Below, one piece after another: positions 19,227-41,265 of a DNA stretch of 64,000 nucleotides. The first letter of the stretch is position 1. Each line of letters starts with the position of its first letter. The notes under the pieces were generated by a model. That model was not told the DNA's origin. It did not search any database and was given only the letters and a program-made list of their open reading frames with translations. The DNA comes from a virus: positions 1 through 64,000 of the IMG/VR virus record IMGVR_UViG_3300037504_000618; one strand, written 5' to 3'. A program made the translations under genes and the position numbers.

Positions 19227-19441
19227 CGTGTTTGCCTCCTTAGCCCCTTGAGGAAGCGGGCTTTTAAGCTTTTGCGGGTCATTTGATTGTAGGCGCTGAG
19301 GACGTTCAGCGCTCTAATGAGCTGCGCTTGGAGCGCGATGACGTAGGCCAAGATGCCCAGGGCTTCCTCGCGGGTGAGGCTGTCGCGCTCACCGTCGAGG
19401 AGCGCGTCAAAGAGGGCGTCGATTTCGTTTTTGGCTAGCAT
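19223..19441 (-). CDS. Hypothetical helical protein
   Basis: 72 residues from the ATG in TGATG, overlapping the recombinase stop. All-helical with a basic C-terminus (KSLKARFLKGLRRQTR). Given its position right after a recombinase it might be an accessory factor (inference). Confidence 0.6.
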   Translation of the reverse strand: MLAKNEIDALFDALLDGERDSLTREEALGILAYVIALQAQLIRALNVLSAYNQMTRKSLKARFLKGLRRQTR

Positions 19442-20472: not shown

Positions 20473-20492
20473 CGGATACTCCTTTTTCCGTG

Positions 20493-20517
20493 ATGGCCCT
20501 GCCCCAAGCAGGGCCAT
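20493..20517 (-). promoter_or_regulatory. Hairpin before the recombinase ribosome site
   Basis: ATGGCCCTGC / GCAGGGCCAT 10-bp stem between the 20521 stop and the recombinase start. On the plus strand it is followed by TTTTTT and could terminate transcripts coming from the opposite strand. Confidence 0.6.
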
Positions 20518-20520
20518 TTT

Positions 20521-20832
20521 TTATAGGCTGGGTTTCTGTTGATTAAGCCAGCGTATAATAATGGATGAGTTCGCGTCCACATCTTGACGATAGCGTGCTT
20601 GCGCCGCTACGTTCAATGCTAGCTTATCAAGGTTGCCCATAGCGTGGATCGCCAATGAAACCATGTCCATGGCCCAGGTATTTATGCTTGCCATTTTCTC
20701 AACGTGAGCCACATGACCAGGTTCATATTCCACGGCGGCCACAAATGACATATCGTTATCGGCGCAGCGTTGCGCTAGTTCTCTCAATTTCGGTGCGACT
20801 TCGTTATCGTAAAAGTCCTCTTTTGTTTGCAT
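20521..20832 (-). CDS. Hypothetical phage protein
   Basis: 103 residues, helical (MQTKEDFYDNEVAPKLRELA, then a central EYEPGHVAHVEKMA). Ribosome site AGAGAGGAG. Resembles small conserved phage proteins of unknown role. Confidence 0.7.
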   Translation of the reverse strand: MQTKEDFYDNEVAPKLRELAQRCADNDMSFVAAVEYEPGHVAHVEKMASINTWAMDMVSLAIHAMGNLDKLALNVAAQARYRQDVDANSSIIIRWLNQQKPSL

Positions 20833-20844
20833 GTTCTCCTCTCT

Positions 20845-21843
20845 TTAAGCGGTGCTTCCCTTCCGATAATGCACCTTATCGGAATGGCCGTTATTTTTCT
20901 CCAAGGCGGCCCGCACGGGACCGCCCAAATGCTTCGCGGGATTGTTGCGTTCTAGATCGCGCACGCGGGCGTAGATCTCGGTGGTCTGGATGCTGGCGTG
21001 GCCTAGCATCTCCTTGATGTAGCGCATCTCTTCATGGTCCATAGCGTGGGTGGCGAAGGAGTGGCGCAGGCTGTGGCATGAGACCCCCGGCCGCTTGAGC
21101 CCCGCGAGCTCTAGGTAGTGGTCAACCGTGAGGCGCACTGCCCGCAGGCTGAGACGCTGCGGTAGGCCCTCACGATTGTGATGCATATTCACGAAGACGG
21201 CCTTTGTTTCCGGCCCCATGAGCATACGATACTTGAGCCACAGCTTCATGATGCTGTGGAGCTCCTCATTCATGGGGACCGCGCGCATCTTGCGACCTTT
21301 GCCCACGATGGTAAGCCGCTTGTTCTCCAGGTCCACGTCGCCAACGTTCATACCTGCGACCTCCATCGTGCGCAGCCCGCCCAGGTACATGCAGGCCAGC
21401 ATGGCGAGGTCACGGACGCCTTTGGGTGTGTGGGGATTGGGCAGCTCGAAGAGGCGGGTGATGTCGCGCTCCGACAAGTACTTGATCTTAGCGGCGCGAT
21501 CTTTCTTGTCCTCTGGGGCTTCGAGATCGTGGGCGGGGTTGCGGTCGAGGAGATCGCGGGCGGTGAGCATGTCGTAGTAGGTGCGCAGGCTGGCGATCTT
21601 GCGGGCGACGGTACTGGCGGCGTATTCCTCCACCAGCCAGGCGCGATAGTCGGCCAGGTCCTCGGCATCCACGGCGAGGAAGGGGACGCCCTCCTCGTCG
21701 AGCCAGGTGAGATGCTGCGCGACGTCCGTGCTGTAGTTGCGCAGGGTGATCGGCGCGGGGTTGCCGCGCGCGACGTGGCCCTTGCACCACTGGCGGAATT
21801 CCCCCAGGAGTTTTCCGGAGGTGATGAGTTCAGCCGCTTGCAT
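20845..21843 (-). CDS. Tyrosine recombinase (XerC/D-like)
   Basis: 332 residues. N-terminal core-binding domain (ITLRNYSTDVAQHLTWLDEE...), catalytic domain with Arg in YLGGLRTMEVAGM, Lys in VGKGRKMRAVPM, HSLRHSFATH, GHASIQTTEIYARV. Closest in layout to Xer/phage integrases. Overlaps the upstream gene by 14 bp. With the 19441 and 25714 enzymes it makes three tyrosine recombinases in 8 kb. Confidence 0.9.
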   Translation of the reverse strand: MQAAELITSGKLLGEFRQWCKGHVARGNPAPITLRNYSTDVAQHLTWLDEEGVPFLAVDAEDLADYRAWLVEEYAASTVARKIASLRTYYDMLTARDLLDRNPAHDLEAPEDKKDRAAKIKYLSERDITRLFELPNPHTPKGVRDLAMLACMYLGGLRTMEVAGMNVGDVDLENKRLTIVGKGRKMRAVPMNEELHSIMKLWLKYRMLMGPETKAVFVNMHHNREGLPQRLSLRAVRLTVDHYLELAGLKRPGVSCHSLRHSFATHAMDHEEMRYIKEMLGHASIQTTEIYARVRDLERNNPAKHLGGPVRAALEKNNGHSDKVHYRKGSTA

Positions 21844-23953: not shown

Positions 23954-24343
23954 ATGAGTGACACTTTGTCAACTTGGGTGAACAGTGAATTGGGAAAACG
24001 TGGTTGGTCAATCCGTGAATTGGCGCGTCGTGCTGATATATCGCCATCTTATGCATCACGGATTGCCAATGGTGAAGTGACGCCTAGCGCGGATATATGT
24101 GTGAGTATTGCTAAGGCATTAAGTATACCACCGGGGATTGTTTTCCAGAAAGCGGGTTACTTACCAAAAACTCCTGCAGGTGAAGATGACGATGAACTGC
24201 AGGAGCTTTATATGGCGGCTAAGCTACTGGATCACAAGGGCCGGCGTCAGGTTCGCGAGTACATTGAGTTTTGCTATCAGAAGCAAATAGAACGCGAGCG
24301 TACAGCCAACGACGGAAGCCTGCCGGCCACCTCCGACGCATAA
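23954..24343 (+). CDS. XRE-family repressor, CI-like
   Basis: 129 residues. HTH_3 domain at about 5-62 (RGWSIRELARRADISPSYAS then RIANGEVTPSADICVSIAKA). Short helical C-terminus (about 80-115) may dimerise; there is no S24 peptidase domain, so induction would not be by RecA self-cleavage. Transcribed away from the CopG-like gene over shared operators. Likely keeper of the lysogenic state. Lower GC than neighbours. Confidence 0.8.
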   Translation: MSDTLSTWVNSELGKRGWSIRELARRADISPSYASRIANGEVTPSADICVSIAKALSIPPGIVFQKAGYLPKTPAGEDDDELQELYMAAKLLDHKGRRQVREYIEFCYQKQIERERTANDGSLPATSDA

Positions 24344-25713: not shown

Positions 25714-26715
25714 ATGGGAAAATTGATGTTGTTTGATGCGTATAAGTCCTTTATGCACTATAAGGAGGCGGCGGGTCTGAGTAAGTATACGATCCGCAAC
25801 TACGGGAACACGTTGAAGAAGCTGGCGCTGTTCTTCGACGAGGAGCCTTCGCTTGAGGACGTCGCGTTCGATGACTGGGTGGAGTTTTTCCACTGGCTTC
25901 AGGAGGATTACACGCCCGCGATGAACGGGGTAGCCCCTCGAAAGGTGAAGACACTCTCGCCCAAGACGGTGCGGAATATCCACACGAATCTGAGCGCTTT
26001 CTATACCTGGGCGCTAGAGTTCGAGCTGGTAGAGGAGCACTTGATCCGCAAGATCGAACAGCCGCGCTATGAGCCCCCCGTGATTGAGCCCTTTACAGAG
26101 GAGGATATCGCCGCGATGCTCAAGGCGTGTAATCATACCAGTGCGTATGATACGCGGCCCAATGTGCGCAACTCACGTCCGACGGCGGAGCGGGATCGTC
26201 TGATTATCGCGCTGCTGTGGTCCACGGGCCTGCGGGCTTCGGAGCTCTGCGATGTCCGTTTTGGCGATCTCAATATGAGTCGCCGTGCCATCCGCGTGCG
26301 CGGGAAGGGCGGGGGCCGGGGGAACAAGGAGCGCATTGTCCACTTCGGCAAGAAGACTGAGAAGCTCCTGTGGAAATGGCTGACTCCGCGCATCTCGGAG
26401 CTGGAGGAGGATGATCACATTATCACGGTCAGCGAGGGGACGGTGAATGAAGGCCCTATGCACCGTAACGTCCTCACAAAGTTGATCCGCCGGATCGGGG
26501 AGCGTGCGGGGATCAAGGATGCGTATCCGCACCGCTTCCGGCATACATTCGCGATCTGGTACATCCGCAACGGCGGCGATCTGTTCACGTTGCAGGGGTT
26601 GCTAGGGCATAGCGACCTGGCCATGGTGCGACGTTACGCGCGGCTCGCGGCGGCGGATTACGCAGCAGCCCACGAGCGTGCAGACCCTTTGGATAATTCC
26701 AAGATCAGATTATAG
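25714..26715 (+). CDS. int: Tyrosine integrase
   Basis: 333 residues, AGGAGG ribosome site. N-terminal SAM-like domain (about 10-110), catalytic domain with Arg in WSTGLRASELCDV, Lys/Gly-rich loop (GKGGGRGNKERIVHF), HRFRHTFA, GHSDLAMVRRYARL. Next to the tRNA-derived attP, so the most likely of the three recombinases to integrate the phage. Followed at once by a terminator. Confidence 0.92.
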   Translation: MGKLMLFDAYKSFMHYKEAAGLSKYTIRNYGNTLKKLALFFDEEPSLEDVAFDDWVEFFHWLQEDYTPAMNGVAPRKVKTLSPKTVRNIHTNLSAFYTWALEFELVEEHLIRKIEQPRYEPPVIEPFTEEDIAAMLKACNHTSAYDTRPNVRNSRPTAERDRLIIALLWSTGLRASELCDVRFGDLNMSRRAIRVRGKGGGRGNKERIVHFGKKTEKLLWKWLTPRISELEEDDHIITVSEGTVNEGPMHRNVLTKLIRRIGERAGIKDAYPHRFRHTFAIWYIRNGGDLFTLQGLLGHSDLAMVRRYARLAAADYAAAHERADPLDNSKIRL

Positions 26716-27227: not shown

Positions 27228-27323
27228 TTGTACCGTGGTACAATCTTTTTCAAATAGTCAAACTCGCCCTTGACAAATAGCGATACCGCTATATAATGAT
27301 AGCGTAGGGTAGCGATAACGCTA
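27228..27323 (+). promoter_or_regulatory. Promoter with palindromic operators, twin of the 9.3-kb promoter
   Basis: TTGTAC-CGTG-GTACAA (27228-27243), then -35 TTGACA (27270-27275), 16-bp spacer holding TAGCGATACCGCTA (27278-27291), -10 TATAAT (27292-27297), second operator TAGCGATAACGCTA (27310-27323). Spacings match the 9258 promoter closely while the operator differs. Drives the operon to 37337. Confidence 0.85.
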
Positions 27324-27350
27324 TAATATTACTAAAAGGGGAGGATATAG

Positions 27351-28343
27351 ATGCAAGCAAGGCAAGTGCTGAAGAATAAGCATTTTAATCGTCTGGCAGC
27401 CATAATCCGCGTTCCGTTTCATTCGTCTGAATGGCGGCAGGAGCACTACAGAGTTGATTTCTGGAGTATGATAGAATCACTTGATGGGGCTATTGAAATT
27501 GATAGCCCCGAATATATCCTGGAGACGCTCACCAGCCTGCTGGTGGCGATTACCAAGGCCGACAGCAACCTAAGTTATTCCCCGGAGGACTTCGATTGGA
27601 TTGTTGAGGTCCTCGAGGATGGGGATCGCGAAATGGTGTTCAGGCTGTTCCAGGCCTGGTATGCCGCAGAGGATAAAGTGGTCACCAGCGAGGAGGCCGC
27701 CGAGATCACCGGCGAGGCCGCATCGACATGGCGCAATCGCGCCAACCGGGGTGAGGTCCCCGGCGCGCGGAAGATGGGCAAGACGTGGCTCTTGCCCGTC
27801 AGCGCATTACGGATGATGGGGGTAGCCCCCATCGCTCGTGGTACGCGGGGGAAGGATCCAGATGTGGCGCTAGTGTTCGATGAATCCAAGTTTGAGATCG
27901 TCAAGGATATGCGCTCTCAAGATCTCGACTGGCTGGCATCCTCGTTACTGGCCCGTCGCAATGAAATCATGGCAGCGCGGTTGGAGAAGCGCGGCCTTCA
28001 GACGCGGACCAAGGCGGAGCTCGGCGAGCATACGATTTATTTCCGCTATATCCTGGTCTATGATCCTACTGGGGAATCGCCAGCAGAGTGGGCGACCCTG
28101 GAGGAAGCCCGGATATTGTTAGACACGGTTCGCGAGCTGGAGCCAGCCGAAGCGTTTGCCCGTTGGCAGCCGAAGGTGACCCCGCTTGAGCGTGAGCCAT
28201 ATACGCGCGATGAGGCACTGCGCGATATGCAGGCCGAACGCGCGGAGGCCAAGCGCTTGTATGAGGCGGGGGAGCTAGACGCAGAGATGTATCAGTTGTT
28301 TCATTCAGGTGCGCGCGATTATCTCGATCTGGTAGAGGATTAA
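27351..28343 (+). CDS. HTH-containing regulator, first gene of the long operon
   Basis: 330 residues. Helical N-terminus; residues about 118-165 form an excisionase/MerR-like HTH with wing (VTSEEAAEITGEAASTWRNR, then ANRGEVPGARKMGKTWLLPV), similar in type to the HTH of the 10495 protein. The C-terminal half is mixed alpha/beta with a charged end. As the first gene behind an operator-rich promoter it could be the autoregulator of the operon (inference). Ribosome site GGGGAGG. Confidence 0.65.
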   Translation: MQARQVLKNKHFNRLAAIIRVPFHSSEWRQEHYRVDFWSMIESLDGAIEIDSPEYILETLTSLLVAITKADSNLSYSPEDFDWIVEVLEDGDREMVFRLFQAWYAAEDKVVTSEEAAEITGEAASTWRNRANRGEVPGARKMGKTWLLPVSALRMMGVAPIARGTRGKDPDVALVFDESKFEIVKDMRSQDLDWLASSLLARRNEIMAARLEKRGLQTRTKAELGEHTIYFRYILVYDPTGESPAEWATLEEARILLDTVRELEPAEAFARWQPKVTPLEREPYTRDEALRDMQAERAEAKRLYEAGELDAEMYQLFHSGARDYLDLVED

Positions 28344-28344
28344 G

Positions 28345-28545
28345 ATGCCGCTATATGTTGATGAGTATGTAACTGTGGATCCAGGAGTGCCGCTCGCCGA
28401 GTGGCGCACATGGGAAGAAGCGGGGATCACGGAGCATTCGCAGTCCGTAGTCAAAGTAGCTCCGTCAGAATGGCATGATAGGCTGCGTGAGTATGCGCGG
28501 CAGCCCGTGGGTTTCTGGGGCGAAAGCCAGTTATTCACGGAATAG
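28345..28545 (+). CDS. Hypothetical protein
   Basis: 66 residues starting 1 bp after the upstream stop (AGAGGATTAAG ribosome context). Aromatic-rich (SEWHDRLREYARQPVGFWGE). No family recognised. Confidence 0.6.
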   Translation: MPLYVDEYVTVDPGVPLAEWRTWEEAGITEHSQSVVKVAPSEWHDRLREYARQPVGFWGESQLFTE

Positions 28546-28550
28546 CTATC

Positions 28551-28615
28551 GAGGCGGGGGCTACGGTCCCCGCCTCTACCAGGGCAACGGACGGGGCTCC
28601 GAGGTCCTGGTAGAG
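28551..28615 (+). promoter_or_regulatory. Two overlapping leader hairpins before the MoxR ATPase
   Basis: Stem 1: GAGGCGGGG (28551-28559) with CCCCGCCTC (28568-28576). Stem 2: CTCTACCAGG (28574-28583) with CCTGGTAGAG (28606-28615). They share three bases, so they cannot both be fully formed. The ribosome site (AAAGGAGGAAGAGG) follows at once. Could be a simple leader or a two-state switch. Confidence 0.6.
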
Positions 28616-28631
28616 GTAAAGGAGGAAGAGG

Positions 28632-29465
28632 ATGGGATTGGAGAAAAATTTAAAGAAAGCGGGTTATATCGCCCGCCCACAGGAACTTTTAGCCCTGCGG
28701 GCAATGACCGCCCGCAGGAACGGGGCGAACGTCCTGATCCTGGAAGGCGCGCCCGGCACGGGCAAGACCTTCCTGGGTGAAGCGTTCGCCCAGGCGATGG
28801 ACGCAGAGGCCATTTACTATCTCTGCCACCATTGGACATCAGAGGAGGAGATGTTCATTGGCGTGGACGTCGGGGCCGTGGCCGCGGGCGTCGAGAAGGC
28901 GGCTGATGCGTACCGACCTGGATTCCTCCTGCGCGCAGTGCAAGCTTCGCAGCAGGGGCCGGTCGTCGTCGTGATCGACGAGATCGACAAAGCCCCGGAG
29001 CGCGCCGAGGCCCTGCTGTTGGACTTCCTGCAATCGGGCCGGGTGCATGGCCCGAACGGGGAAGTCTGGCAGGGGGACCTGGCCAATATGTTCGTGTTCA
29101 TTACCACGAACGGCCTGCGTCCCTTGATGGAGCCCACGCTGCGGCGCGGGTTCCGGCTGACGATGGAGTTTCTACCTGCCCACGTCGAGGCGGATGTGCT
29201 GCGCAAGGCCACGGGCGCGCCCACAGGGGCAATCCGGGCCGTGGTGCGGATGGCGAATGTGATCCGCACGCAGGGCACGACCTCCGTCTCGCTCCAGGAG
29301 ATGCGCCATCTCCTGGAGGACATGACAGTGGCCACGTCGGCGCGTGACGTGGAGATCTTGCTGAGCGGCTGGCTGGTGAAGGAGCCCGCCGATCGCGAGG
29401 CTTTAGACGCGGAGTTTGGCGGCAAGGCGGCCGCCGTGCTCTGGGGGGAGTGGAAACGTGGGTAA
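28632..29465 (+). CDS. MoxR-family AAA+ ATPase
   Basis: 277 residues. Walker A GAPGTGKT (39-46), Walker B VVVVIDEID (DEID about 116-119), sensor 1 FITTNG, and an Arg finger region (PTLRRGFRLTMEF). Such ATPases act as metal-chelatase-like or chaperone-like remodellers and nearly always pair with a vWA protein, here the next gene, overlapping by 8 bp. Similar pairs are known as CobS/CobT-like proteins in large phages and as the core of vWA-MoxR conflict systems (established families). Which applies here is open. Confidence 0.85.
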   Translation: MGLEKNLKKAGYIARPQELLALRAMTARRNGANVLILEGAPGTGKTFLGEAFAQAMDAEAIYYLCHHWTSEEEMFIGVDVGAVAAGVEKAADAYRPGFLLRAVQASQQGPVVVVIDEIDKAPERAEALLLDFLQSGRVHGPNGEVWQGDLANMFVFITTNGLRPLMEPTLRRGFRLTMEFLPAHVEADVLRKATGAPTGAIRAVVRMANVIRTQGTTSVSLQEMRHLLEDMTVATSARDVEILLSGWLVKEPADREALDAEFGGKAAAVLWGEWKRG

Positions 29466-31227
29466 TAAGTTGGAGCTCCCGCTGAGCGTGCGGGATGCGC
29501 AGAAGCTTTTCCCGCGCCTCACAGCCAGGTCCTGGTTTGTGGAAGAGCGCAACCAAATTGAGCGCATTGCGTTTGCCGTCGGCGTGAAGCCGTTTCATCG
29601 CGGTTACGCGGATGCGGTCAGGGCTGAGCTTGCGCGTCTCGCGCAGCAGCGGGGGCCGAAGGCAGTGCTTTTGCCTTCGCCAGAGTCCGAGTCTCAGGGG
29701 GAGGCGCAGCCTTCCCCCACATCCGACCGTGAGCATCAGATCGGGACGGATGAGGTAGCCGAGCAATCTGAGAATCCCAGCGAGGATTCACAGATGCACG
29801 GCGGGGACTCGGCCTCTGGCGAGGTCGAAAGTGGGACCTCAGAAGGGGGTGATAACGAATCAGGAGCCCCCTCCGCCGACAGCGTTCAGACCTTCACGGG
29901 ATCTGGAACCGGTGGCGGTGAGATGGGGCAAGGCGCGGGGCAGGGCTCCGCACAAGCAGGGACGCGCTTCTCTGCACAATCCGGCAAGGCTGACGCGGGC
30001 GAGGAGCCCGGTGAGTCGGCTGGCGAGACGGGGGCTGAAGACTCAGCAAGGGCTGAGAGCACTGCAGCTTTCACGTCGCCAGAGGCACACACCAAGCCTA
30101 CTGGAGGGTCAAACGGCCTACGGGCCGATGCGCAGGCAAGGCAACGTAGCCAGGAGGACGAGTCGGCTCCGTCCTCCCAATCTGCAAAGAACGCCGGTGG
30201 GCAGAATGCCCTTAATCGTGCCTCCTCGGAGGAGACCGGCGCAGAAGAAAAGGGCGACGCCATGCCTAAGGCTGACGAGCATGCAGCGCGTGACACCGAC
30301 GCGCTCCGCGCTGCGCTCACCGGACGGGCCAACGCCGCTGATGCGGTGGATGCAAGCCCAGGCGCTCAGGGCAAGGAGTCCGGCGACCCCGACGAGGCCA
30401 AGGGGTCGGAAAAGATCAGCTATCGCTATCGCAGTGTCAAGCGCGGTAGCGGTAAGCAAGCCTCCGTTTCCGCCAAGCGAGAATTTGGCGGCGTGACCGC
30501 CGAGCTGAGTCGCGCGGGCCTGGACCCGCACATCGCGAAAGAAGCGCGTCGAGCGCTGGCGCGACTCATCGAGGGCGGGGAATCCCAAGCCGGGCCGCGC
30601 TGGGACTGGGTGGAGTTTAGCAAGCGGTTGAAGACCGCACGCTCCGTCTATCCCGCGCGCAAGGAAGAGGAAGGTCGCCCGGCGATCTTGGTGCTAGCCG
30701 ATGTATCAGGTTCCTGTCAAGGATTTTCGGATGAGAGCTTGATCGTAGCGCAGGCGGCAGCCTCGTTAGGCGTGCGCGGTGCGGATGTAATCGTCGTGGC
30801 GCATTCCAACGGCTACCCGCAGCAAGTCAAGATCAATCGCGATGCCGTCGAGGAAGTCGGGCGGATGGCGGAAGGCGCGGATATCGCTTGGTATGAGGAT
30901 CTCATCAAGCGCTTCGATATCCAGGCCGTGGTGGCCCTCGGCGATTGGGATGCCGAGTGGCTATATCACAAGCTGGCCGATCTCCCGCGCGTGCGACGCT
31001 TCGTGTGGCTCGATAACTGGAGCAATTCAGTGATGGAGCCGACGGTACGCGCTGATCTATTCAGCAAAGCGGCGCGAAGCACGTGGGATGATTGCTCATG
31101 GCATAGCCCATGGCACTTCGAGTCGGCTTGGTCCCCGCAGGCACAGCGCAAGGCGACGTATGTCGTGGGCTGTAGCCACGCGGAGGATTTTGTGAAGGGC
31201 CTGGAACTGGCCCTGAGGAGGAAATAA
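29458..31227 (+). CDS. vWA-domain protein, partner of the MoxR ATPase
   Basis: 589 residues from a GTG inside the end of the ATPase gene. Basic N-terminal domain (about 1-70), a long low-complexity acidic, Ser/Gly/Glu-rich linker (about 75-330), and a C-terminal vWA domain with the MIDAS motif DVSGS (near 414) and conserved ALGDWD. The vWA domain binds a divalent ion and partner proteins. The disordered acidic linker resembles CobT. The lengthy minus-strand frames across the linker are artefacts of its composition. Confidence 0.85.
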   Translation: MGNKLELPLSVRDAQKLFPRLTARSWFVEERNQIERIAFAVGVKPFHRGYADAVRAELARLAQQRGPKAVLLPSPESESQGEAQPSPTSDREHQIGTDEVAEQSENPSEDSQMHGGDSASGEVESGTSEGGDNESGAPSADSVQTFTGSGTGGGEMGQGAGQGSAQAGTRFSAQSGKADAGEEPGESAGETGAEDSARAESTAAFTSPEAHTKPTGGSNGLRADAQARQRSQEDESAPSSQSAKNAGGQNALNRASSEETGAEEKGDAMPKADEHAARDTDALRAALTGRANAADAVDASPGAQGKESGDPDEAKGSEKISYRYRSVKRGSGKQASVSAKREFGGVTAELSRAGLDPHIAKEARRALARLIEGGESQAGPRWDWVEFSKRLKTARSVYPARKEEEGRPAILVLADVSGSCQGFSDESLIVAQAAASLGVRGADVIVVAHSNGYPQQVKINRDAVEEVGRMAEGADIAWYEDLIKRFDIQAVVALGDWDAEWLYHKLADLPRVRRFVWLDNWSNSVMEPTVRADLFSKAARSTWDDCSWHSPWHFESAWSPQAQRKATYVVGCSHAEDFVKGLELALRRK

Positions 31228-31646
31228 TGAATGAAGTAATAGTAATGCCCGCGAGGGCATGGCAGTTTCCGGTGAAAGTTGAGATGCCGCAGTTCTCGGC
31301 GGCATTGGCGAGGCTAGAGGCGCAAGGTCTCGGCCGCGCCAACTTCAAAGTGTTGGTGCGTGAGGCAGCGAAGCGGCATCCGCTGTATCACACGCCAGTG
31401 CAGCTTGATCCGCAGGTGGCCGGACGTTCGGATCAAGGCGAAGAGATCCCGGTCAATACGTTGGGGCGCTGGTTATTTGGCGTCCCCGGCTACCAAGGCA
31501 ACGCTCGGTTCGTGGGGTGGGATGAGGTACCTCACGTCGAGTTACCTGAGGATTGCCCGGTGCACGTAGTTGCGTTGCTCCAGGGATTAAGCCTTGGAGC
31601 TATATACGATGCATTATCGAGATTGCTTGAGGCGGTGCGGTCATGA
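31227..31646 (+). CDS. Hypothetical protein of the MoxR-vWA operon
   Basis: 139 residues, start one base over the vWA stop (TAATG). Contains LGRWLFGVPGYQGNARFVGW and VALLQGLSLGAIYDALSRLL. Not recognised. Position suggests a system-specific factor. Confidence 0.65.
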   Translation: MNEVIVMPARAWQFPVKVEMPQFSAALARLEAQGLGRANFKVLVREAAKRHPLYHTPVQLDPQVAGRSDQGEEIPVNTLGRWLFGVPGYQGNARFVGWDEVPHVELPEDCPVHVVALLQGLSLGAIYDALSRLLEAVRS

Positions 31647-31930
31647 ACCGCAAGCAAGTGCTTCTCTGCGTCAATGGCGCAGAGACAGCGCGAGATGATG
31701 GTGATCCGGCTGTGGATATAATCGCGGCCCCGCCGACTGGCTGGCGAATTGAGTTCGTCAGCAAAGACGAGTTCGGCCGTCTCCATTTGCGCTTTGTCAA
31801 GCCTGAAGGAAACGGGCGTATGTGGCTACGGGATGAGGCGCGGATGCGACAGGCGGAAGCTGAGCTGGCGGCGTGGCTGGCTGATTTATGGCGGCTGGTT
31901 ATGCCGGTGGAGGAGGATGACGACAAATGA
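31643..31930 (+). CDS. Hypothetical protein of the MoxR-vWA operon
   Basis: 95 residues, ATGA overlap with the upstream gene and ATGA overlap with the helicase downstream. Beta-rich N-terminal half (PPTGWRIEFVSKDEFGRLHL), helical acidic C-terminus. Not recognised. Confidence 0.65.
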   Translation: MNRKQVLLCVNGAETARDDGDPAVDIIAAPPTGWRIEFVSKDEFGRLHLRFVKPEGNGRMWLRDEARMRQAEAELAAWLADLWRLVMPVEEDDDK

Positions 31931-34551
31931 CCCTCACCATCCGCACCCACCAGACCCCATCACACCAGGTCGCTACTATCGCCCTGGAGGATGGCGTGAT
32001 CCAGACACGCCTCCCCCAGCGGGATGACGATTTCGTGGACCTCGTTCGCGAGCTCCACTACCGTTGTGATGGGGCCTGGTGGGCGCGCCGCCCCTCGGAG
32101 CGCTCCGGCCCCTTGCTGCACCGTGCAGCGGAGTTGGGCCGGGCGCTCTTAGAGGCCGGTTATATCGTGACGTTCCCCGCTGAGGATGTGCAGGCCCTTG
32201 CTGTCAGTGGGGACTATGAGCCGGAATGCCGCCGGTGGATCTTGCGGGATGAGGATAAGTTCCGCGTCTGGTGGGGCTACGAGCTGGACTATTACAACGA
32301 GGCGCGCGAGATCACGGGTAGCTTCTACGATAGCACGCGCAGCGCCGTGCTGGTCCCCCGCGAGAATTTCGCCGAGGTACTGGATTTCGCGGAGGCGTAT
32401 GGTTTCAGCCTCACGGAAGCGGCACAGCGTCTCGTTGCTGAAGTGCAGGCGTGGTTCGAGGCGTTGCCCGTCGTATCCCTAGGGGAGGCGGAGCTGGTCG
32501 CCAGGCCAGAGACGCCCACGTCAGCCTTGACCGCCGTGATAGAGATCGACGATCACGCGGTGCGCGTGCGTTTATCGCGCAAGGACGAGCGCTTCGTCGA
32601 GATCGTCAAATGCCTGCATTATGTCTGGAACGGCGCGTGGTGGGCCAGGGTGCTCAAGCCGCGTATGGGGCGCGTGTCCCATCGGGCGGCCGAGTTGGGC
32701 CAGGCGTTGCTGGCGGCGGGCTACATGGTGGAATTCCCCAACGAGGCCATACGCGCGCTGGCGATCAGCGGCGCGTATGAGCCCGAATGTCGCAAGTGGA
32801 TCTTGTGGCATGAGCGGGGCTTCCGCGTTTGGTGGGGGCCGGAGCTCGACTTCTTCCACGAGGCCAAGCGCATCGCGGCCAGCACGTATGATGCTTCATC
32901 GTATTCCGTGATCGTGCCCCGTGAGTATTTCAATGAGGTGCTCGGCTTCGCGGAGACCTACGATTTCCGCATCGCGGCCAAGGCGCAGCAGCAGATCGAC
33001 CAGGCGCGCGCTTGGTACGACGGCGCGCAGGTCGTGGACGTGGCTTATGACCCCGCGAATCAACAGACGGCTTACGTCCGGCCCAAGCTCAAGACCCCGG
33101 CGCACGTGGATGTGCCGGTGCGCCTGCTCGATTATGCCGGGCTGGATTTCGGCGTGACAACGCGCCTCTATAGCCATCAACAGCGCGCCGTGGACAAACT
33201 GCGCGATCTGCGCGTGGGTGCGCTGTTTATGGCTATGGGGACGGGTAAAACGCGCACGGCGATTGAGTTAGTGCATCGCCGTCGCCAGCGCATCAGGAAC
33301 GTGGTGTGGTTCTGTCCGGTCTCGCTCAAGGAGACGATTGCCTACGAGATCGACAAGCACACCGACACGCCCCCGAACCAGATCTATATCTTCGATGACA
33401 CGACTACCATGCGCACGCTGCCGCGCGCGTTCTGGTACATCGTGGGCCTGGAATCCATCAGCGGCAGTGACCGCGTGACGCTCACGGCCCATAATTTGAT
33501 TGACGCGGATTCATTTGTGATCGTGGATGAGTCCTCGTATATCAAAGGGCACAACTCGCTGCGCACGCAGCGGGTGACGCGCATGGGGCACAAGGCGCGC
33601 TACCGCTTGATCCTCACGGGCACGCCTGTGAGTCAGGGCGTGGTGGATCTTTTCGCTCAGATGCGCTTTCTCGATCCGGCGATCCTGGGCTACAATTCTT
33701 TCTACTCGTTCGAGGCCAACCACCTTGAATACTCGGAGAAGTATCCGGGCTTGGTCGTGCGCTCGCACAACGAAGCGTGGCTCGCGGCCAAGATGCAGCC
33801 GTATGTCTATCAGGTCACGAAGGAGGAATGCCTGGATCTGCCGGATAAGTTGTTCGATACGCGCTATTATCGGATGACGTCCGAGCAGCGCGACCTCTAT
33901 GAGCAGGCAAAATACGATATCCTGTTTAGCCTGCCGGATGAGGACATCGACAGCTACGTGATCTTCCAACTGTTCACAGCGTTGCAGCAGATCGTCTCCG
34001 GCTTTTGGCAACAGGGCGAGACGCTGTGGGAGGTACCGCATTATCGCCTGGAACATCTGGTCCAGGCGCTTGAGGATCTCCCCGACGGCAAGAAGGTCGT
34101 GATCTGGTGCAAATATCGTTATAGCGTGCGCGCGATTGCCGACCGCCTGCGGGAGGATTACGGTGAGGACGCGGTGGCGTTATTCTATGGCGATCTGAAT
34201 GAGCACGCGCGTAATCAAGAGCTGGCGCGCTGGCGGGCTGAGGCGCGCTTCCTGGTGGCGACAATGGCCACGGGAGGCTACGGCCTCGATCTGACGGCGG
34301 CGCATTATAGCATCTTTTATGAGAATGATTTTAAGTATAGCCTCAGGCTTCAGTCCGAGGATCGTATCCACCGCATCGGGCAGGATAAGCACCCGACGTA
34401 TATTGACCTGGTCTGCCGGCAGAGCATCGACGAGCGGATCCAGGACGCGCTAGCCACGAAAGGCAACGCGGCGGATGCGTTCCGTCGCGAGGTGGAGCGG
34501 GTGAAGGACGCGGGGCGTGAGGCGTTGGAGAGGATGGTGAAGGCGTTATGA
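31927..34551 (+). CDS. SNF2-family helicase with duplicated N-terminal domain
   Basis: 874 residues. Residues about 1-180 and 190-370 are two copies of one domain: both have RxDxxFVxxV...LHY, GAWWAR, HRAAELGxALLxAGYxVxFP, SGxYEPECRxWIL, FRVWWGxELD. The helicase core follows: motif I MAMGTGKT (near 436), motif II DESS (near 533), motif III LTGTP, and the C-terminal lobe (FYGDLNEHARNQELARWR, then IHRIGQDK). Tandem domains before a SNF2 core recall the two HARP domains of SMARCAL1-type annealing helicases (analogy only). Likely remodels or translocates on DNA. Overlaps both neighbours by 4 bp. Confidence 0.88.
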   Translation: MTLTIRTHQTPSHQVATIALEDGVIQTRLPQRDDDFVDLVRELHYRCDGAWWARRPSERSGPLLHRAAELGRALLEAGYIVTFPAEDVQALAVSGDYEPECRRWILRDEDKFRVWWGYELDYYNEAREITGSFYDSTRSAVLVPRENFAEVLDFAEAYGFSLTEAAQRLVAEVQAWFEALPVVSLGEAELVARPETPTSALTAVIEIDDHAVRVRLSRKDERFVEIVKCLHYVWNGAWWARVLKPRMGRVSHRAAELGQALLAAGYMVEFPNEAIRALAISGAYEPECRKWILWHERGFRVWWGPELDFFHEAKRIAASTYDASSYSVIVPREYFNEVLGFAETYDFRIAAKAQQQIDQARAWYDGAQVVDVAYDPANQQTAYVRPKLKTPAHVDVPVRLLDYAGLDFGVTTRLYSHQQRAVDKLRDLRVGALFMAMGTGKTRTAIELVHRRRQRIRNVVWFCPVSLKETIAYEIDKHTDTPPNQIYIFDDTTTMRTLPRAFWYIVGLESISGSDRVTLTAHNLIDADSFVIVDESSYIKGHNSLRTQRVTRMGHKARYRLILTGTPVSQGVVDLFAQMRFLDPAILGYNSFYSFEANHLEYSEKYPGLVVRSHNEAWLAAKMQPYVYQVTKEECLDLPDKLFDTRYYRMTSEQRDLYEQAKYDILFSLPDEDIDSYVIFQLFTALQQIVSGFWQQGETLWEVPHYRLEHLVQALEDLPDGKKVVIWCKYRYSVRAIADRLREDYGEDAVALFYGDLNEHARNQELARWRAEARFLVATMATGGYGLDLTAAHYSIFYENDFKYSLRLQSEDRIHRIGQDKHPTYIDLVCRQSIDERIQDALATKGNAADAFRREVERVKDAGREALERMVKAL

Positions 34552-34925
34552 AGGCGCTGTCAATACGCCCTCCTTGGGGCAATATGATCTTTGATTCGTC
34601 TAATCCCAAGGACGTGGAGAATCGTAGCTGGTCCACGAAGTATCGAGGGCGCTTCTGGGTCCATGTAGGGAAGACTTTTGATAGCGCGGGGTATCACTGG
34701 ATCACGACAATGGGGATAGCGTTGCCTACGCCGTCCGCATTTATTCGCGGGGGAATTATCGGCTCGGTGTGCTTGGTGGATGTGGTCACGGAGAGTGATA
34801 GCCCATGGTTCATAGGGCCTTATGGTTTCGTGTTGGAGGATCCGCGCCCGTGCGAGTTTGTGCCGTTGCGGGGGCGGTTGGGGTTTTTTGAGTTTGAGGG
34901 GGAAGAATGCCCAAGCGATATTTGA
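34548..34925 (+). CDS. ASCH-domain protein
   Basis: 125 residues. LSIRPPWGNMIF, KDVENRSWSTKYRGRFWVH, GSVCLVDVV and SPWFIGPYGFVL are the hallmark stretches of ASCH domains (PUA-like beta barrel). Known ASCH proteins bind RNA or hydrolyse N4-acetylcytidine. Its operon partners include a GNAT acetyltransferase and a PAPS-reductase-like enzyme. ATGA overlap with the helicase. Confidence 0.85.
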   Translation: MKALSIRPPWGNMIFDSSNPKDVENRSWSTKYRGRFWVHVGKTFDSAGYHWITTMGIALPTPSAFIRGGIIGSVCLVDVVTESDSPWFIGPYGFVLEDPRPCEFVPLRGRLGFFEFEGEECPSDI

Positions 34926-36292
34926 GCATTAATGTACTTACGGCTGCGCGCCAACGTCTCGAGCTGATATTTGACGAGTTCGAGACGCTGGTAGTCTCCT
35001 ATTCTGGGGGGAAGGATTCAACCGTGTTGCTTGAGTTGGCACGTCGCGAGGCCCAGAGACGGGGACGCAAGATCTATGCCTTGTTTATAGATCTTGAGGC
35101 GCAGTATCAGGCGACGATAGCGCAGGTCGAGCGGCAGATGCTCAATGATCCGGTCATTGAGCCGATTTGGGTAGCAGTGCCGCTTAATCTACGCAATGCT
35201 GTATCGGTTTTTCAGCCCCATTGGGCATGCTGGGATCCGCAGGCTCGCGATATGTGGGTGCGACCGATGCCGGAGTATGATTGCGTGTTGAAAGATTACG
35301 AGGCGCTGCCTTTCTTTCGCTATCGGATGGAATTCGAGGAATTCATCGTTGAATTCCCCCGTTGGTTTTGCGAGACGCGGGGCTTGAATAATTACGCCAG
35401 CCTCGTGGCGATTCGGAGTGATGAATCTTTGAACCGCTATAAGGCTGTAGCACGCCGTCTCGATGGGCCGAAGAAGAGCGCGTATTATGATCGCGCCGGG
35501 GAGATTCGACGGTGGGGCACGGTACAGGATAAGGAGCCGAGTATTGTGGCTTTCTATCCCATCTATGATTGGCGCGTTGAGGATGTCTGGCGCTTCATCG
35601 GCGGGGAGCGCTTGCCCTATAATCGGATTTATGACCAGATGTACTGGGCCGGCTTGCCCCTCTCTGAGCAGCGCATTTGTCAGCCCTACGGCGATGATCA
35701 GCGCAAGGGCTTGGATCTATGGGCCAAGTCTGAGCCGGAGACTTGGCAGCGTGTGCTGGACCGCGTGCGCGGGGTCAATTATGGGGCGCGGTATGCCGGG
35801 CAAAAGCTCCTAGGGTATCATCGGGGCGTCGCTTTGCCAGAGGGGCATACATGGAAGAGCTACACGTTCTTCTTGCTCGCGACGCTCCCGGACGTGATGC
35901 GGGAGCGATACCTGAGTAACTTTGCCGTGTTCTTAGAGTGGTGGATGCGGCATGGTTACGACAATCTGGAAACGGTCCACGATGACGAGACCGCGCCGCT
36001 TAAGCAAAGTGACTGGCGGCGGCTGCCTTCGTGGCGGCGGCTGGCGTTGGCAATTCTCAAGAATGATTTCCTGTGCAAGTCACTCTGCATTGGTCGGATC
36101 AAGAATGTGTATGCCGATGTGTATGAGCGTGTAGCGGCGGGGAAGCCGGTGAAGGTGCGCAAGAGCGTGAAGCCCGTATATGCCTACTTGCGCAAACAGT
36201 ATCAAGCCTATCTTGATGGGGGAATTGAGCAGGTAGATGTGGATTTTGTGTTACCTGAGCACCCCATGAAGAAACGATATCGGGACATTTAG
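34907..36292 (+). CDS. ibrA: IbrA-like PAPS reductase-family protein (DUF3440)
   Basis: 461 residues. PP-loop SYSGGKDST at 31-39 binds ATP and adenylates or reduces a sulfur substrate in related enzymes. Further landmarks: WVRPMPEYDCVLKDYEALPF, VAIRSDESLNRY, FYPIYDWRVEDVWRFIG and RICQPYGDDQR, plus a C-terminal extension as in IbrA. It pairs with an IbrB-like ParB protein two genes on, as in E. coli prophage ibrAB. The biochemical product is not known. Start inside the end of the ASCH gene (19-bp overlap). Confidence 0.82.
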   Translation: MPKRYLSINVLTAARQRLELIFDEFETLVVSYSGGKDSTVLLELARREAQRRGRKIYALFIDLEAQYQATIAQVERQMLNDPVIEPIWVAVPLNLRNAVSVFQPHWACWDPQARDMWVRPMPEYDCVLKDYEALPFFRYRMEFEEFIVEFPRWFCETRGLNNYASLVAIRSDESLNRYKAVARRLDGPKKSAYYDRAGEIRRWGTVQDKEPSIVAFYPIYDWRVEDVWRFIGGERLPYNRIYDQMYWAGLPLSEQRICQPYGDDQRKGLDLWAKSEPETWQRVLDRVRGVNYGARYAGQKLLGYHRGVALPEGHTWKSYTFFLLATLPDVMRERYLSNFAVFLEWWMRHGYDNLETVHDDETAPLKQSDWRRLPSWRRLALAILKNDFLCKSLCIGRIKNVYADVYERVAAGKPVKVRKSVKPVYAYLRKQYQAYLDGGIEQVDVDFVLPEHPMKKRYRDI

Positions 36293-36300
36293 GAGGAATG

Positions 36301-36702
36301 ATGATAACGTATAAGACTTTGGAGCAAGGACGTGAGTTTTACGTACTGATGGGACCTTTCCTGGTAAGTCGAGCCGTGCGTCGCGAGTTGGGCATTGCTA
36401 TTAGCAGTGATGAGCACTATCGCTGGGTGTTGGCGCTGGACGGCGATACCGTTGCCGGGTTTGCAGCGGTGGAGTTGTACGGGGATACAGCGCAGCTTAG
36501 GCACGTTTATGTTGTGCCAGAGTATCGCGGGCGTGGGGTTTGCAGTGAGCTAGTAGAAGCCCACGAGGAGATTGCCCGGAAAGCTGGCTTTGCCAGTATT
36601 GAGGCTGTGGTGGCTCCTACACTACGGGCGCTTTTAGATAAGCGGGGGTATGAGCAAGTCGGGAATCGCGGTAAGTACGCGATTATGGAGAAAAGCTTAT
36701 GA
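36301..36702 (+). CDS. GNAT-family acetyltransferase
   Basis: 133 residues. Motif A of GNAT proteins (LRHVYVVPEYRGRGVCSELV, binding the CoA pyrophosphate) and a C-terminal strand (KRGYEQVGNRGKYAIMEK). ATG at 36301 sits 4 nt from AGGAGG; an ATG at 36298 is too close. Substrate unknown: antibiotic, amino acid, protein or nucleic acid. The position between ibrA-like and ibrB-like genes is notable. Confidence 0.8.
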   Translation: MITYKTLEQGREFYVLMGPFLVSRAVRRELGIAISSDEHYRWVLALDGDTVAGFAAVELYGDTAQLRHVYVVPEYRGRGVCSELVEAHEEIARKAGFASIEAVVAPTLRALLDKRGYEQVGNRGKYAIMEKSL

Positions 36703-37337
36703 AATCCTTATTTGCCCCTTTAGTTGAGGATGTGGTAGCGCAGGCCCGTGAGCTGGCGGCGGCTATAGAGGAATTGCCGTTGGAGCAGAAAGTGGAAGCG
36801 TTGAATCAGGTGCGCGCCCTGCTTCATGCGGTCAGTCCTTTCTGCGAGCAACCGGTGGACTATGTGGCATGGGTTCCCGCTGATGAGGTCGAGGGCAACG
36901 ACTATAATCCGAATAACGTTGCGCCCCCGGAGATGCGCTTGCTTAAGATTTCTGTGGATCACGATGGCTTCACGCAGCCTATCGTGACGTGGCCCAGGGG
37001 GGACGGGATGCTTGAGGTCGTGGATGGGGAGCACCGCACCCGCGTGGGACGGGAGCGGGAGGAGCTGCATGGCTATCTCCCTGTTACGCGGGTCTCGGCG
37101 GGTAGGCAGGGCCGCAAGGATCGTATGGCTGCTACGATTCGGCATAATCGCGCGCGCGGTGTACACGCGGTGATGTCGATGACGGACATCGTGGCCGAGT
37201 TGGTCAGCCTCGGTTGGACGGATGATGAGGTAGCGCGGGAGTTGGGGATGGACGCCGACGAGGTACTGCGATTCAAGCAGACGGCGGGAATTGCCGATCT
37301 GTTTGAGGATCGTGAGTACAGTAAGGCTTGGGAGTAG
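36699..37337 (+). CDS. ibrB: IbrB-like ParB-domain protein
   Basis: 212 residues. The N-terminal 60 are helical; then the ParB-like core in its IbrB form (VPADEVEGNDYNPNNVAPPE, DGFTQPIVT, VVDGEHRTRVG, ATIRHNRARGVHA). A C-terminal HTH (WTDDEVARELGMDADEVLRF) may bind DNA. ATGA overlap with the GNAT gene. A cluster of four iterons starts 2 bp after its stop, so it may bind there (inference). Confidence 0.82.
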   Translation: MKSLFAPLVEDVVAQARELAAAIEELPLEQKVEALNQVRALLHAVSPFCEQPVDYVAWVPADEVEGNDYNPNNVAPPEMRLLKISVDHDGFTQPIVTWPRGDGMLEVVDGEHRTRVGREREELHGYLPVTRVSAGRQGRKDRMAATIRHNRARGVHAVMSMTDIVAELVSLGWTDDEVARELGMDADEVLRFKQTAGIADLFEDREYSKAWE

Positions 37338-37338
37338 T

Positions 37339-37413
37339 AACGGTTAGCCGTTCGTACCAACGGTTAGCCGTCTCGGTAGTAACGGTTAGCCGTTCGTACC
37401 AACGGTTAGCCGT
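37339..37413 (+). repeat. Four iterons AACGGTTAGCCGT after the IbrB-like gene
   Basis: AACGGTTAGCCGT starts at 37339, 37359, 37381 and 37401 (spacing 20, 22, 20; 42-bp higher-order unit repeated twice). Each has AACGG/CCGT(T) arms, so dyad symmetry. All copies lie on about the same helix face, as in operators or centromere sites. Confidence 0.85.
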
Positions 37414-37423
37414 CCCGGATGTA

Positions 37424-37527
37424 AATTAACAGTCGTTTTTTACCCGCGTTATCCCGCCTCAGACCCCCATCTGGGGCGGGGTTGCGTAAGAGAAACAGCC
37501 GTTAAGATAAGTTAACGGCTGTTTTTG
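37424..37527 (+). terminator. Terminator pair at operon end (boundary repeat, copy C)
   Basis: An 11-bp stem at 37453-37480 (CCCGCCTCAGA with TCTGGGGCGGG, one G-U) and a 13-bp perfect stem AAACAGCCGTTAA / TTAACGGCTGTTT (37493-37524) ending in TTTTT. Same family as copies A and B. Confidence 0.88.
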
Positions 37528-39721: not shown

Positions 39722-40639
39722 ATGGCAAAAAATGGAGCGTCACGTAGGGTCGAAGTCAACACGGACACAATCACTTTCGGGGTGGAGATCGAGTGCACAT
39801 TACCGGAGTCCTTCATCCAGGAGCGCGGTATCGAGATCGGTAGTTATCGACACGGGGCTGCGTTGCCTGCGCCCTTCCCCATCGGATGGGTGGCGAAATA
39901 CGATAGCTCGGTGCGGGAGAACGATTTGCGATATGAAGCTCTCGAAATCGTCTCCCCGGTCCTCAAGGGCAAGGACGGTTTGGAGGAGGTCCTGGCGGTC
40001 TATGACATCCTCAACGAGGCGGGCGCCACGGTGAACACCAGTTGCGGGTTCCACGTCCACGTCGGGGTGGAATCGGTCCTGGGGGACAAGGCGGAGGTCG
40101 AGGGTATCCTGGTGCGGTGGGTGCGGCGGATGCTGAACCTGGTGAGCAATCACGAACTGGGCCTTTTCGCCATCACGGGGCGCACTTCACGGTTTAATAA
40201 CCACTATTGCAACACAATCACTCATAAGTGGGACGGGAAGTTAACGACCCAGAGTTCAGTGAAGGTCATCGAGGACGAGACAGCGGGGCACAGTCAACGG
40301 TATTACACGTTGAATCTCTGTAACTTAAACGCAGCCTCCAAGCGCACGGTGGAATTTCGGCTGTTCGGGGCGACCTTGAACGGATACCAGGCCATCGGGT
40401 ACATTATCACCGCCATGGGTATTGCGCACCGGGCCGCGCAGGTGGGGACCGCGCCGAAGTTTAAGGCGTCCTACAGCACGGCGGACGTCCCGGACGCGGT
40501 GCGCGACCTTCAAAAACTCCTCCGTAACTACGGGTGGCCGTCGGGGGCGAAAAAGGCGTGGGGGCGGGAAATCCGCCAGGTACAGCGGGAGGCCGCCGAG
40601 CGCTTTGACCGAGATTTGGTCCAGGGGGTAACACGATGA
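39722..40639 (+). CDS. Amidoligase (COOH-NH2 ligase) family protein
   Basis: 305 residues. Motifs of amidoligase_2: FGVEIEC (about 19-25, metal and ATP-binding acids), EALEIVSPVL, CGFHVHVG (about 108-115) and TVEFRLFGAT (about 212-221). The family is related to glutamine synthetase and joins carboxyl and amino groups using ATP. The next gene is a class-I glutamine amidotransferase, a known pairing. Target unknown: a protein, a wall peptide or a small molecule. Confidence 0.88.
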   Translation: MAKNGASRRVEVNTDTITFGVEIECTLPESFIQERGIEIGSYRHGAALPAPFPIGWVAKYDSSVRENDLRYEALEIVSPVLKGKDGLEEVLAVYDILNEAGATVNTSCGFHVHVGVESVLGDKAEVEGILVRWVRRMLNLVSNHELGLFAITGRTSRFNNHYCNTITHKWDGKLTTQSSVKVIEDETAGHSQRYYTLNLCNLNAASKRTVEFRLFGATLNGYQAIGYIITAMGIAHRAAQVGTAPKFKASYSTADVPDAVRDLQKLLRNYGWPSGAKKAWGREIRQVQREAAERFDRDLVQGVTR

Positions 40640-41265
40640 AAACGGTTCTCATTACACAGGGGTCTTGGGCGCGGGAAATCGCCCGGACGTTACAGGGTCT
40701 AGGGGCAAGGACACACGTCCTTGCCCCCCACGAAAACGACCTCGAGCAATATGATGCGTACAGCCATATCCTTATCCCCGGCGGGGCGGACATCCATCCC
40801 CAGCACTACGGGGAGGACGTGGTGTGGGCGCGGCCCTACGCGCCGGAGCGCGACCAGGGGGAGATCCCTCTGGTGAAACGCGCCTTGGCGGGGGGGAAAC
40901 CCGTGCTGGGTATCTGTCGCGGACACCAGGTCATCACGGTGGCGGCGGGGGGCAGTCTATATCAGGATATCCAACTAGACCTGGACCTCAGCCACGACGC
41001 GCACACGCATTTGGTGCGGGTCGCGCCCTGGTCGCGGCTGTCCACGTGGTTAGGAGTAGCGGGGCGGTATCGGGTCAATTCTTTCCATCACCAGGCGGTG
41101 AAGCGGGTCCCGGCAGGGTGGCACGTGGCGGCGGAATCCTTCACGGGCGTGGTCGAGGCCATCGAGCACCCGCACCTTCCCGTTATTTCGGTGCAGTGGC
41201 ACCCAGAGCAATTATCGGACCCCGCGTCCCGCAATCTCTTCGTTAAATTCCTGGCATTTGAGTAA
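40636..41265 (+). CDS. Class-I glutamine amidotransferase-like (peptidase C26)
   Basis: 209 residues with the full catalytic triad: Cys94 in LGICRGHQ, His189 and Glu191 in QWHPE; VNSFHHQAV is also typical of gamma-glutamyl hydrolase/PuuD-like members. It may cleave gamma-glutamyl bonds or feed ammonia to the amidoligase that overlaps it (ATGA). The two together could add and remove an isopeptide-type bond. Confidence 0.88.
   Translation: MKTVLITQGSWAREIARTLQGLGARTHVLAPHENDLEQYDAYSHILIPGGADIHPQHYGEDVVWARPYAPERDQGEIPLVKRALAGGKPVLGICRGHQVITVAAGGSLYQDIQLDLDLSHDAHTHLVRVAPWSRLSTWLGVAGRYRVNSFHHQAVKRVPAGWHVAAESFTGVVEAIEHPHLPVISVQWHPEQLSDPASRNLFVKFLAFE

What the first reader, a model, noticed from the sequence alone, without database searches (positions are those of the whole stretch)
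27228..37527. Ten-kb operon combining MoxR, vWA, SNF2, ASCH, IbrA-like, GNAT and IbrB-like proteins
From 28632 to 37337 the genes are nearly all coupled (ATGA or longer overlaps): MoxR ATPase, vWA protein, two unknowns, SNF2 helicase with a duplicated N-terminus, ASCH, DUF3440/IbrA, GNAT, IbrB. MoxR-vWA pairs form the core of known regulated conflict systems and CobS/CobT-like phage pairs; IbrA-IbrB is a known but functionally unsolved pair; ASCH and GNAT could read, add or remove an acetyl group. I know of no described system with this set. It could be a superinfection or host-takeover system, or a nucleic-acid modification cassette. This is my best candidate for an undescribed system.
Basis: partly seen in the sequence, partly recalled or inferred. 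Interest (0 to 1): 0.8.

Follow-up and report, generated by a model that had tools for sequence, protein, structure and literature searches.

The report
Phage SNF2–IbrA–GNAT–IbrB cassette, composite operon
This phage operon joins a gene cassette that recurs in dozens of different phages (a DNA motor, an ATP-splitting enzyme, an acetyltransferase-like enzyme and a ParB-like DNA-binding protein, probably for marking or remodelling DNA) to a separate chaperone-like gene pair that was not found with it in any other locus examined.

Summary
But the nine-gene set is a composite. SNF2–IbrA–(GNAT)–IbrB is a conserved phage and prophage cassette: of 51 non-duplicate viral contigs with this SNF2 clade, 49 carry IbrA and IbrB beside it, and the other two end too soon to tell. 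Across 79 loci the order SNF2, IbrA, IbrB holds in 75. None of the 51 has MoxR or vWA nearby. MoxR–vWA occurs as its own pair in six other viral contigs without IbrA. The 139- and 95-residue proteins have no detectable relatives. IbrA keeps an invariant ATP-pyrophosphatase loop but has no conserved cysteine, so it is probably an adenylating enzyme, not a PAPS reductase or DndC-like sulfurtransferase. The SNF2 N-terminal repeats (51% identical) weakly resemble XPB and MutS DNA-recognition domains. One subclade has a DNA methyltransferase plus an unknown gene, nearly always without GNAT. Best guess: ATP-driven modification of phage DNA (about 40%); transcriptional control is the main rival. I found no paper describing this cassette in the library available.

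The parts
27270..27297 (+). sigma-70-type promoter, TTGACA-16-TATAAT
   Evidence: 12 of 12 consensus match
27278..27323 (.). two palindromic operator-like repeats TAGCGATA(C/A)CGCTA at 27278-27291 and 27310-27323
   Evidence: only exact copies in the window
27351..28343 (+). HTH330, first gene of the unit, excisionase-type HTH
   Evidence: HTH_17 below cut-off; 43% relative of its C-terminal half upstream of SNF2 in L129
28345..28545 (+). 66-residue ORF
   Evidence: ORF only
28632..29465 (+). MoxR AAA+ ATPase
   Evidence: AAA_5 E 2e-15; relatives in six viral contigs with vWA
29458..31227 (+). vWA protein, MIDAS DVSGS, low-complexity linker rich in Ala, Gly, Ser and Glu
31227..31646 (+). u139, unknown orphan
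   Evidence: no family and no relative
31643..31930 (+). u95, unknown orphan
   Evidence: no family and no relative
31927..34551 (+). SNF2 helicase with two N-terminal DNA-recognition-like repeats
34548..34925 (+). ASCH-domain protein
   Evidence: phrog_3193 E 1e-38; ASC-1 ASCH match
34907..36292 (+). IbrA, PP-loop ATP pyrophosphatase plus DUF3440
36298..36702 (+). GNAT
   Evidence: Acetyltransf_1 E 3e-13; usual place between IbrA and IbrB
36699..37337 (+). IbrB, ParB-like, DGxHR motif
   Evidence: phrog_2159 E 3e-62

Best explanation
The operon is a composite. Its core (SNF2 - IbrA - GNAT - IbrB) is a conserved phage cassette that most likely modifies or marks phage DNA with ATP. IbrB (ParB/Srx fold, DGxHR) loads on DNA and gives site or NTP control. 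The SNF2 motor scans or remodels DNA, guided by tandem N-terminal domains like those that recognise distorted DNA in XPB and MutS. IbrA splits ATP to AMP and PPi to activate (adenylate) the group being modified. GNAT supplies an acyl-type group; one subclade instead has a DNA methyltransferase plus X290. ASCH may read the product. MoxR-vWA-u139-u95 is a second module placed ahead of this core, probably a chaperone pair for assembling a complex. A repressor acting at two operators would keep the operon off in a lysogen. Shown: gene content, linkage, module separation, promoter and operator repeats, motif conservation. Inferred: DNA as substrate, adenylation chemistry, GNAT, ASCH and MoxR-vWA roles, repression.
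For: Linkage: 49 of 51 viral loci of the SNF2 clade have IbrA and IbrB; order kept in 75 of 79. GNAT lies between IbrA and IbrB in 42 of 54 same-strand GNAT hits. The SNF2 N-terminal domain is a separate adjacent gene in most relatives and fused to SNF2 in L128, L129, L131 and the window, so the two act together. IbrA PP-loop S33, G35-S38, D62, E64 and E173, S174, R177 invariant or nearly so in 172 homologs; fold nearest PAPS/APS reductases and the ATP sulfurylase subunit CysD. Intact SNF2 ATPase motifs. SNF2 N-terminal repeat model pLDDT 96, best though weak matches XPB N-terminus, phage helicases and MutS domain I. The X290 subtype always carries an N6/N4 DNA methyltransferase (17 of 17 versus 1 of 62). 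MoxR-vWA separability.
Against: No direct evidence of any modified DNA. IbrA lacks a conserved Cys, so DndC-type sulfur chemistry is unlikely. The X290-methyltransferase association arose once on the IbrA tree, so it is one event, not 17. GNAT changes about 15 times on that tree, so it is accessory, and its acetyl-CoA loop is only partly conserved. Foldseek gave no PDB match at E<=0.001 for the SNF2 N-terminal repeat. IbrA-IbrB pairs without SNF2 are common in genomes and occur on plasmids, so SNF2 is not obligatory.
Confidence: 0.4

Rival explanations
1. IbrA-IbrB, with SNF2 acting on the transcription machinery as RapA/HepA does, switches phage gene expression (the co-activator role after which the pair is named).
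For: The name and annotation 'co-activators of prophage gene expression'. IbrB is ParB-like with a likely DNA-binding helical part. Terminase and portal genes are among the recognisable families downstream of the cassettes. A HepA-related phage protein matches the SNF2 N-terminal model.
Against: Does not explain the invariant ATP-pyrophosphatase loop of IbrA, the GNAT, or the methyltransferase subtype.
Confidence: 0.2
2. The cassette is a counter-defence or superinfection-control system that alters host or phage DNA, or host factors, to block restriction or competing phages.
For: Mobile-element distribution in phages, prophages and plasmids. SNF2 core related by profile to ZorD and DpdE defence helicases.
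Against: No PADLOC system match for IbrA, IbrB or GNAT beyond weak PP-loop hits; no nuclease or toxin in the cassette.
Confidence: 0.17
3. All nine genes form one system in which MoxR-vWA loads or remodels the IbrAB-SNF2 complex.
For: Overlapping genes behind one promoter with no strong + strand terminator inside.
Against: MoxR-vWA is absent from all 51 viral loci of the clade and from 15 whole records; MoxR-vWA records lack IbrA.
Confidence: 0.1
4. DNA phosphorothioation-like sulfur modification, with IbrA as a DndC analogue and IbrB as a DndB analogue, using host IscS.
For: DndC and BrxP are weak profile hits for IbrA; DndB belongs to the ParB superfamily.
Against: No cysteine column above 69% in IbrA, whereas DndC C280 of the [4Fe-4S] cluster is essential (PMC11662687); no DndD, DndE or desulfurase in the operon.
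Confidence: 0.07

Closest known systems
IbrA-IbrB pair of phages, prophages and plasmids (DUF3440 plus ParB)
   Same: Window IbrA and IbrB are clear family members, in the usual order and close together
   Different: Here embedded with SNF2 and GNAT; most genome-borne pairs lack SNF2 (13 of 80 loci have it)
Phage helicase - PAPS-reductase-like - ParB gene runs (Streptococcus phage Bsingle, Mycobacterium phage Nebkiss)
   Same: Same three core families in the same order
   Different: Shorter helicase genes; annotated gene by gene and not described as a system
Dnd, Ssp and BREX type 4 phosphorothioation systems
   Same: PP-loop protein with ParB-superfamily protein and ATPases
   Different: IbrA lacks the DndC cysteines; no DndD or DndE
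Dpd 7-deazaguanine systems
   Same: ParB-like protein and SNF2 helicase (DpdE) together
   Different: No DpdA transglycosylase or DpdC in the operon
Viral MoxR-vWA pairs (group 2.2 jumbo phages; Acidianus two-tailed virus; PMC7824862)
   Same: MoxR AAA+ ATPase next to a vWA protein in a viral genome
   Different: No peptidase domain found; its own small sequence family with six further contigs

Membership tests
IbrA (DUF3440) | PAPS_reduct plus DUF3440 domains | tested here: met
   PF11922 E 2e-34, PF01507 E 1e-15
IbrA (DUF3440) | PP-loop SxGKDS | tested here: met
   S33, G35, K36, D37, S38 at 1.00 in 172 homologs
IbrB (ParB-like) | ParB/Srx-type protein beside IbrA | tested here: met
   phrog_2159 E 3e-62; found with IbrA in 79 of 80 genome loci
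IbrA-IbrB co-activators | activation of prophage genes | not testable with these tools
   needs expression data
Assimilatory PAPS/APS reductase | conserved catalytic cysteine | tested here: not met
   no Cys column above 69%
DndC phosphorothioation protein | [4Fe-4S] cluster cysteines (C280 essential, PMC11662687) | tested here: not met
Dnd system | linked DndD, DndE or desulfurase | tested here: not met
   none in the operon
Dpd system | DpdA transglycosylase and DpdC | tested here: not met
   none in the operon
MoxR-vWA pair | adjacent MoxR ATPase and vWA protein with MIDAS | tested here: met
MoxR-vWA conflict systems | third component such as iSTAND, beta-propeller or peptidase | tested here: inconclusive
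   no such domain found; u139 and u95 unassigned
SNF2 helicase | SNF2 core with Walker A, DExx and motif VI | tested here: met
XPB-DRD / HARP type domain | fold match to the XPB damage recognition domain | tested here: inconclusive
   XPB entries are the best hits, prob up to 0.85, but all E above 0.01; phage helicases and MutS domain I also match; HARP itself not tested
GNAT acetyltransferase | acetyl-CoA loop R/QxxGxG/A | tested here: inconclusive
   R77 and G80 common, last position often Phe or Tyr, not Gly or Ala
ASCH | ASCH domain | tested here: met
   sequence match to ASC-1 ASCH, E 8e-5

The most novel reading that the evidence does not exclude
SNF2-IbrA-IbrB with an exchangeable modifier (GNAT, or X290 plus methyltransferase) is an undescribed class of phage DNA-modification machine, in which a PP-loop enzyme without conserved cysteines adenylates a DNA group so that an acyl or amino group can be attached, and the IbrAB pair of bacteria and plasmids is its reduced form.
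Probability: 0.2. Interest if true: 0.85.

Novelty: new variant of a known kind. Interest (0 to 1): 0.52.

Why it matters
IbrA-IbrB is common (123 confirmed stretches in one genome scan; 642 plasmid records with an IbrB-like match) yet unsolved. Placing it in a conserved, ordered cassette with a DNA motor and an exchangeable modifying enzyme gives a testable set of partners and predicts activities: ATP-PPi exchange for IbrA, DNA loading for IbrB, DNA-dependent ATPase for SNF2. It also separates the part worth testing from the MoxR-vWA pair, which looks like a separate module.

Tried and rejected
The vWA query alone found no viral relative and MoxR none in cultured phages; relatives appeared only with a two-sequence profile. 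MoxR-like hits near IbrA in L081 and L108 looked like linkage but are an unrelated AAA ATPase and a ClpC-type protein, by reading the sequences. Thiolation was judged unlikely for lack of conserved Cys. The X290/methyltransferase/GNAT pattern is significant by Fisher test but the X290 subtype is one clade, so it is not counted as repeated evidence. Distance matrices: IbrA-IbrB r=0.63 and SNF2-IbrA r=0.19 (0 of 2000 permutations as high), SNF2-IbrB r=0.11 (65 of 2000): SNF2 tracks the pair only loosely. A self-comparison of the two halves of the SNF2 repeat gave nothing. The family scan of genes downstream of the cassettes was diffuse, with packaging genes the most recognisable.

Full report
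1. What is there. The window is bases 1-64000 of a 72,037-bp virus record with a terminase large subunit, integrases and a CI-like repressor gene. ASCH, missed by Pfam, is confirmed by a sequence match to the ASC-1 ASCH domain. The unit probably begins before MoxR: HTH330 (27351-28343) follows a perfect TTGACA-16-TATAAT promoter at 27270-27297, overlaid by two palindromic 14-bp repeats TAGCGATA(C/A)CGCTA, the only exact copies in the window; the rest of the record has one copy with two mismatches, which chance can give. That pattern suggests a repressed operon; which protein binds is not known.

2. Two modules. I collected 23 viral contigs by IbrA, 80 viral contigs by the SNF2 core, 80 bacterial and archaeal contigs by IbrA and 38 viral contigs by MoxR, and scanned all open frames with iterated profiles. 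After removing duplicate contigs (by eye and by identical protein tails), 51 viral loci hold the close SNF2 clade. IbrA and IbrB follow in 49, and the other two (L148, L158) run off the contig. GNAT is present in 21. MoxR or vWA is present in none. Fifteen whole records hold no MoxR, whereas the same profile finds it in all three control records; many of these records are fragments. Conversely, six viral contigs (L025, L197-L201) have a vWA gene beside MoxR, and none of these six records contains IbrA. In the whole set of triads the order SNF2, IbrA, IbrB is kept in 75 of 79. On a tree of IbrA the window sits with L002, L003, L117 and L149 (SH-aLRT 97), all of GNAT type and without MoxR. In L129 a relative of the C-terminal half of HTH330 lies 424 bp upstream of SNF2, so the MoxR-vWA-u139-u95 block may have come between HTH330 and SNF2; this rests on one locus.

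3. Parts of the core. IbrA: in 172 homologs the PP-loop (S33, G35, K36, D37, S38), D62, E64, E173, S174, R177, D221 and R256 are invariant or nearly so, and no column is Cys in more than 69%. The AlphaFold model (pLDDT 89.7) matches PAPS/APS reductases and CysD best (profile search). A complete PP-loop is, from established knowledge of this superfamily, the mark of ATP pyrophosphatases, while PAPS reductases use a catalytic cysteine. IbrB: ParB-like with DGxHR. SNF2: intact ATPase motifs with two N-terminal repeats 51% identical. Relatives carry one copy, usually in a separate upstream gene. One repeat was modelled at pLDDT 96. The best solved matches are XPB chains (several TFIIH entries; XPB-Bax1 6p4w prob 0.85, rmsd 3.2 over 71 columns), all with E above 0.01. 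Among viral models it matches phage helicases, a HepA-related protein and MutS domain I. I read this as a DNA-structure recognition domain, with low certainty. GNAT: family hits are clear, the acetyl-CoA loop is partly conserved.

4. Exchangeable component. Seventeen triads have an unknown ~290-residue gene between SNF2 and IbrA (no Pfam hit) and a methyltransferase (PF01555), usually after IbrB, nearly always without GNAT. The tree shows this subtype as one clade and about 15 changes for GNAT. A DNA methyltransferase in one subtype of the same cassette is the strongest hint that the substrate is DNA, but it is one evolutionary event.

5. Distribution and literature. Cultured phages show the same helicase, PAPS-reductase-like and ParB run (Nebkiss, Bsingle). 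IbrB-like proteins occur on 642 plasmid records; the two I opened have IbrA beside IbrB, one as HTH-IbrA-GNAT-IbrB. Full-text searches found the pair only as annotations such as 'co-activators of prophage gene expression' and no description of the cassette; most subscription journals were not searchable.

6. Verdict. Observation confirmed; the one-system interpretation is not supported; the core cassette is a real and, as far as I could search, undescribed association of known families. Mechanism is inferred: DNA modification about 0.4, transcription control about 0.2, counter-defence about 0.17.

Noticed in passing
window 27278-27323: Two palindromic operator-like repeats overlapping the operon promoter; the CI-like repressor gene at 23954-24343 is a candidate source of the binder.
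   Followed up: partly
L128:11356-12246 and 16 other triad loci: Unknown ~290-residue protein (X290) always found with a DNA methyltransferase, in one subclade of the cassette.
   Followed up: partly
L009:6933-13264: Two IbrA-IbrB pairs in tandem, plus two GNAT-like genes, X290 and a methyltransferase, in one phage.
   Followed up: no
window 39722-41265: Amidoligase followed by a glutamine amidotransferase, just downstream of the operon.
   Followed up: no
window 19441-21843 and 25714-26715: Three tyrosine-recombinase-like genes in one phage region; two confirmed by PHROG, the third (20845-21843) read by eye.
   Followed up: no
window 28345-28545: The 66-residue ORF repeats a DPxxxxAEWxTxEEA-like motif of the preceding HTH330 protein.
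   Followed up: no
L235 (E. coli plasmid NZ_CP078136.1): IbrA-IbrB pair about 3 kb downstream of an F4 fimbria cluster.
   Followed up: no
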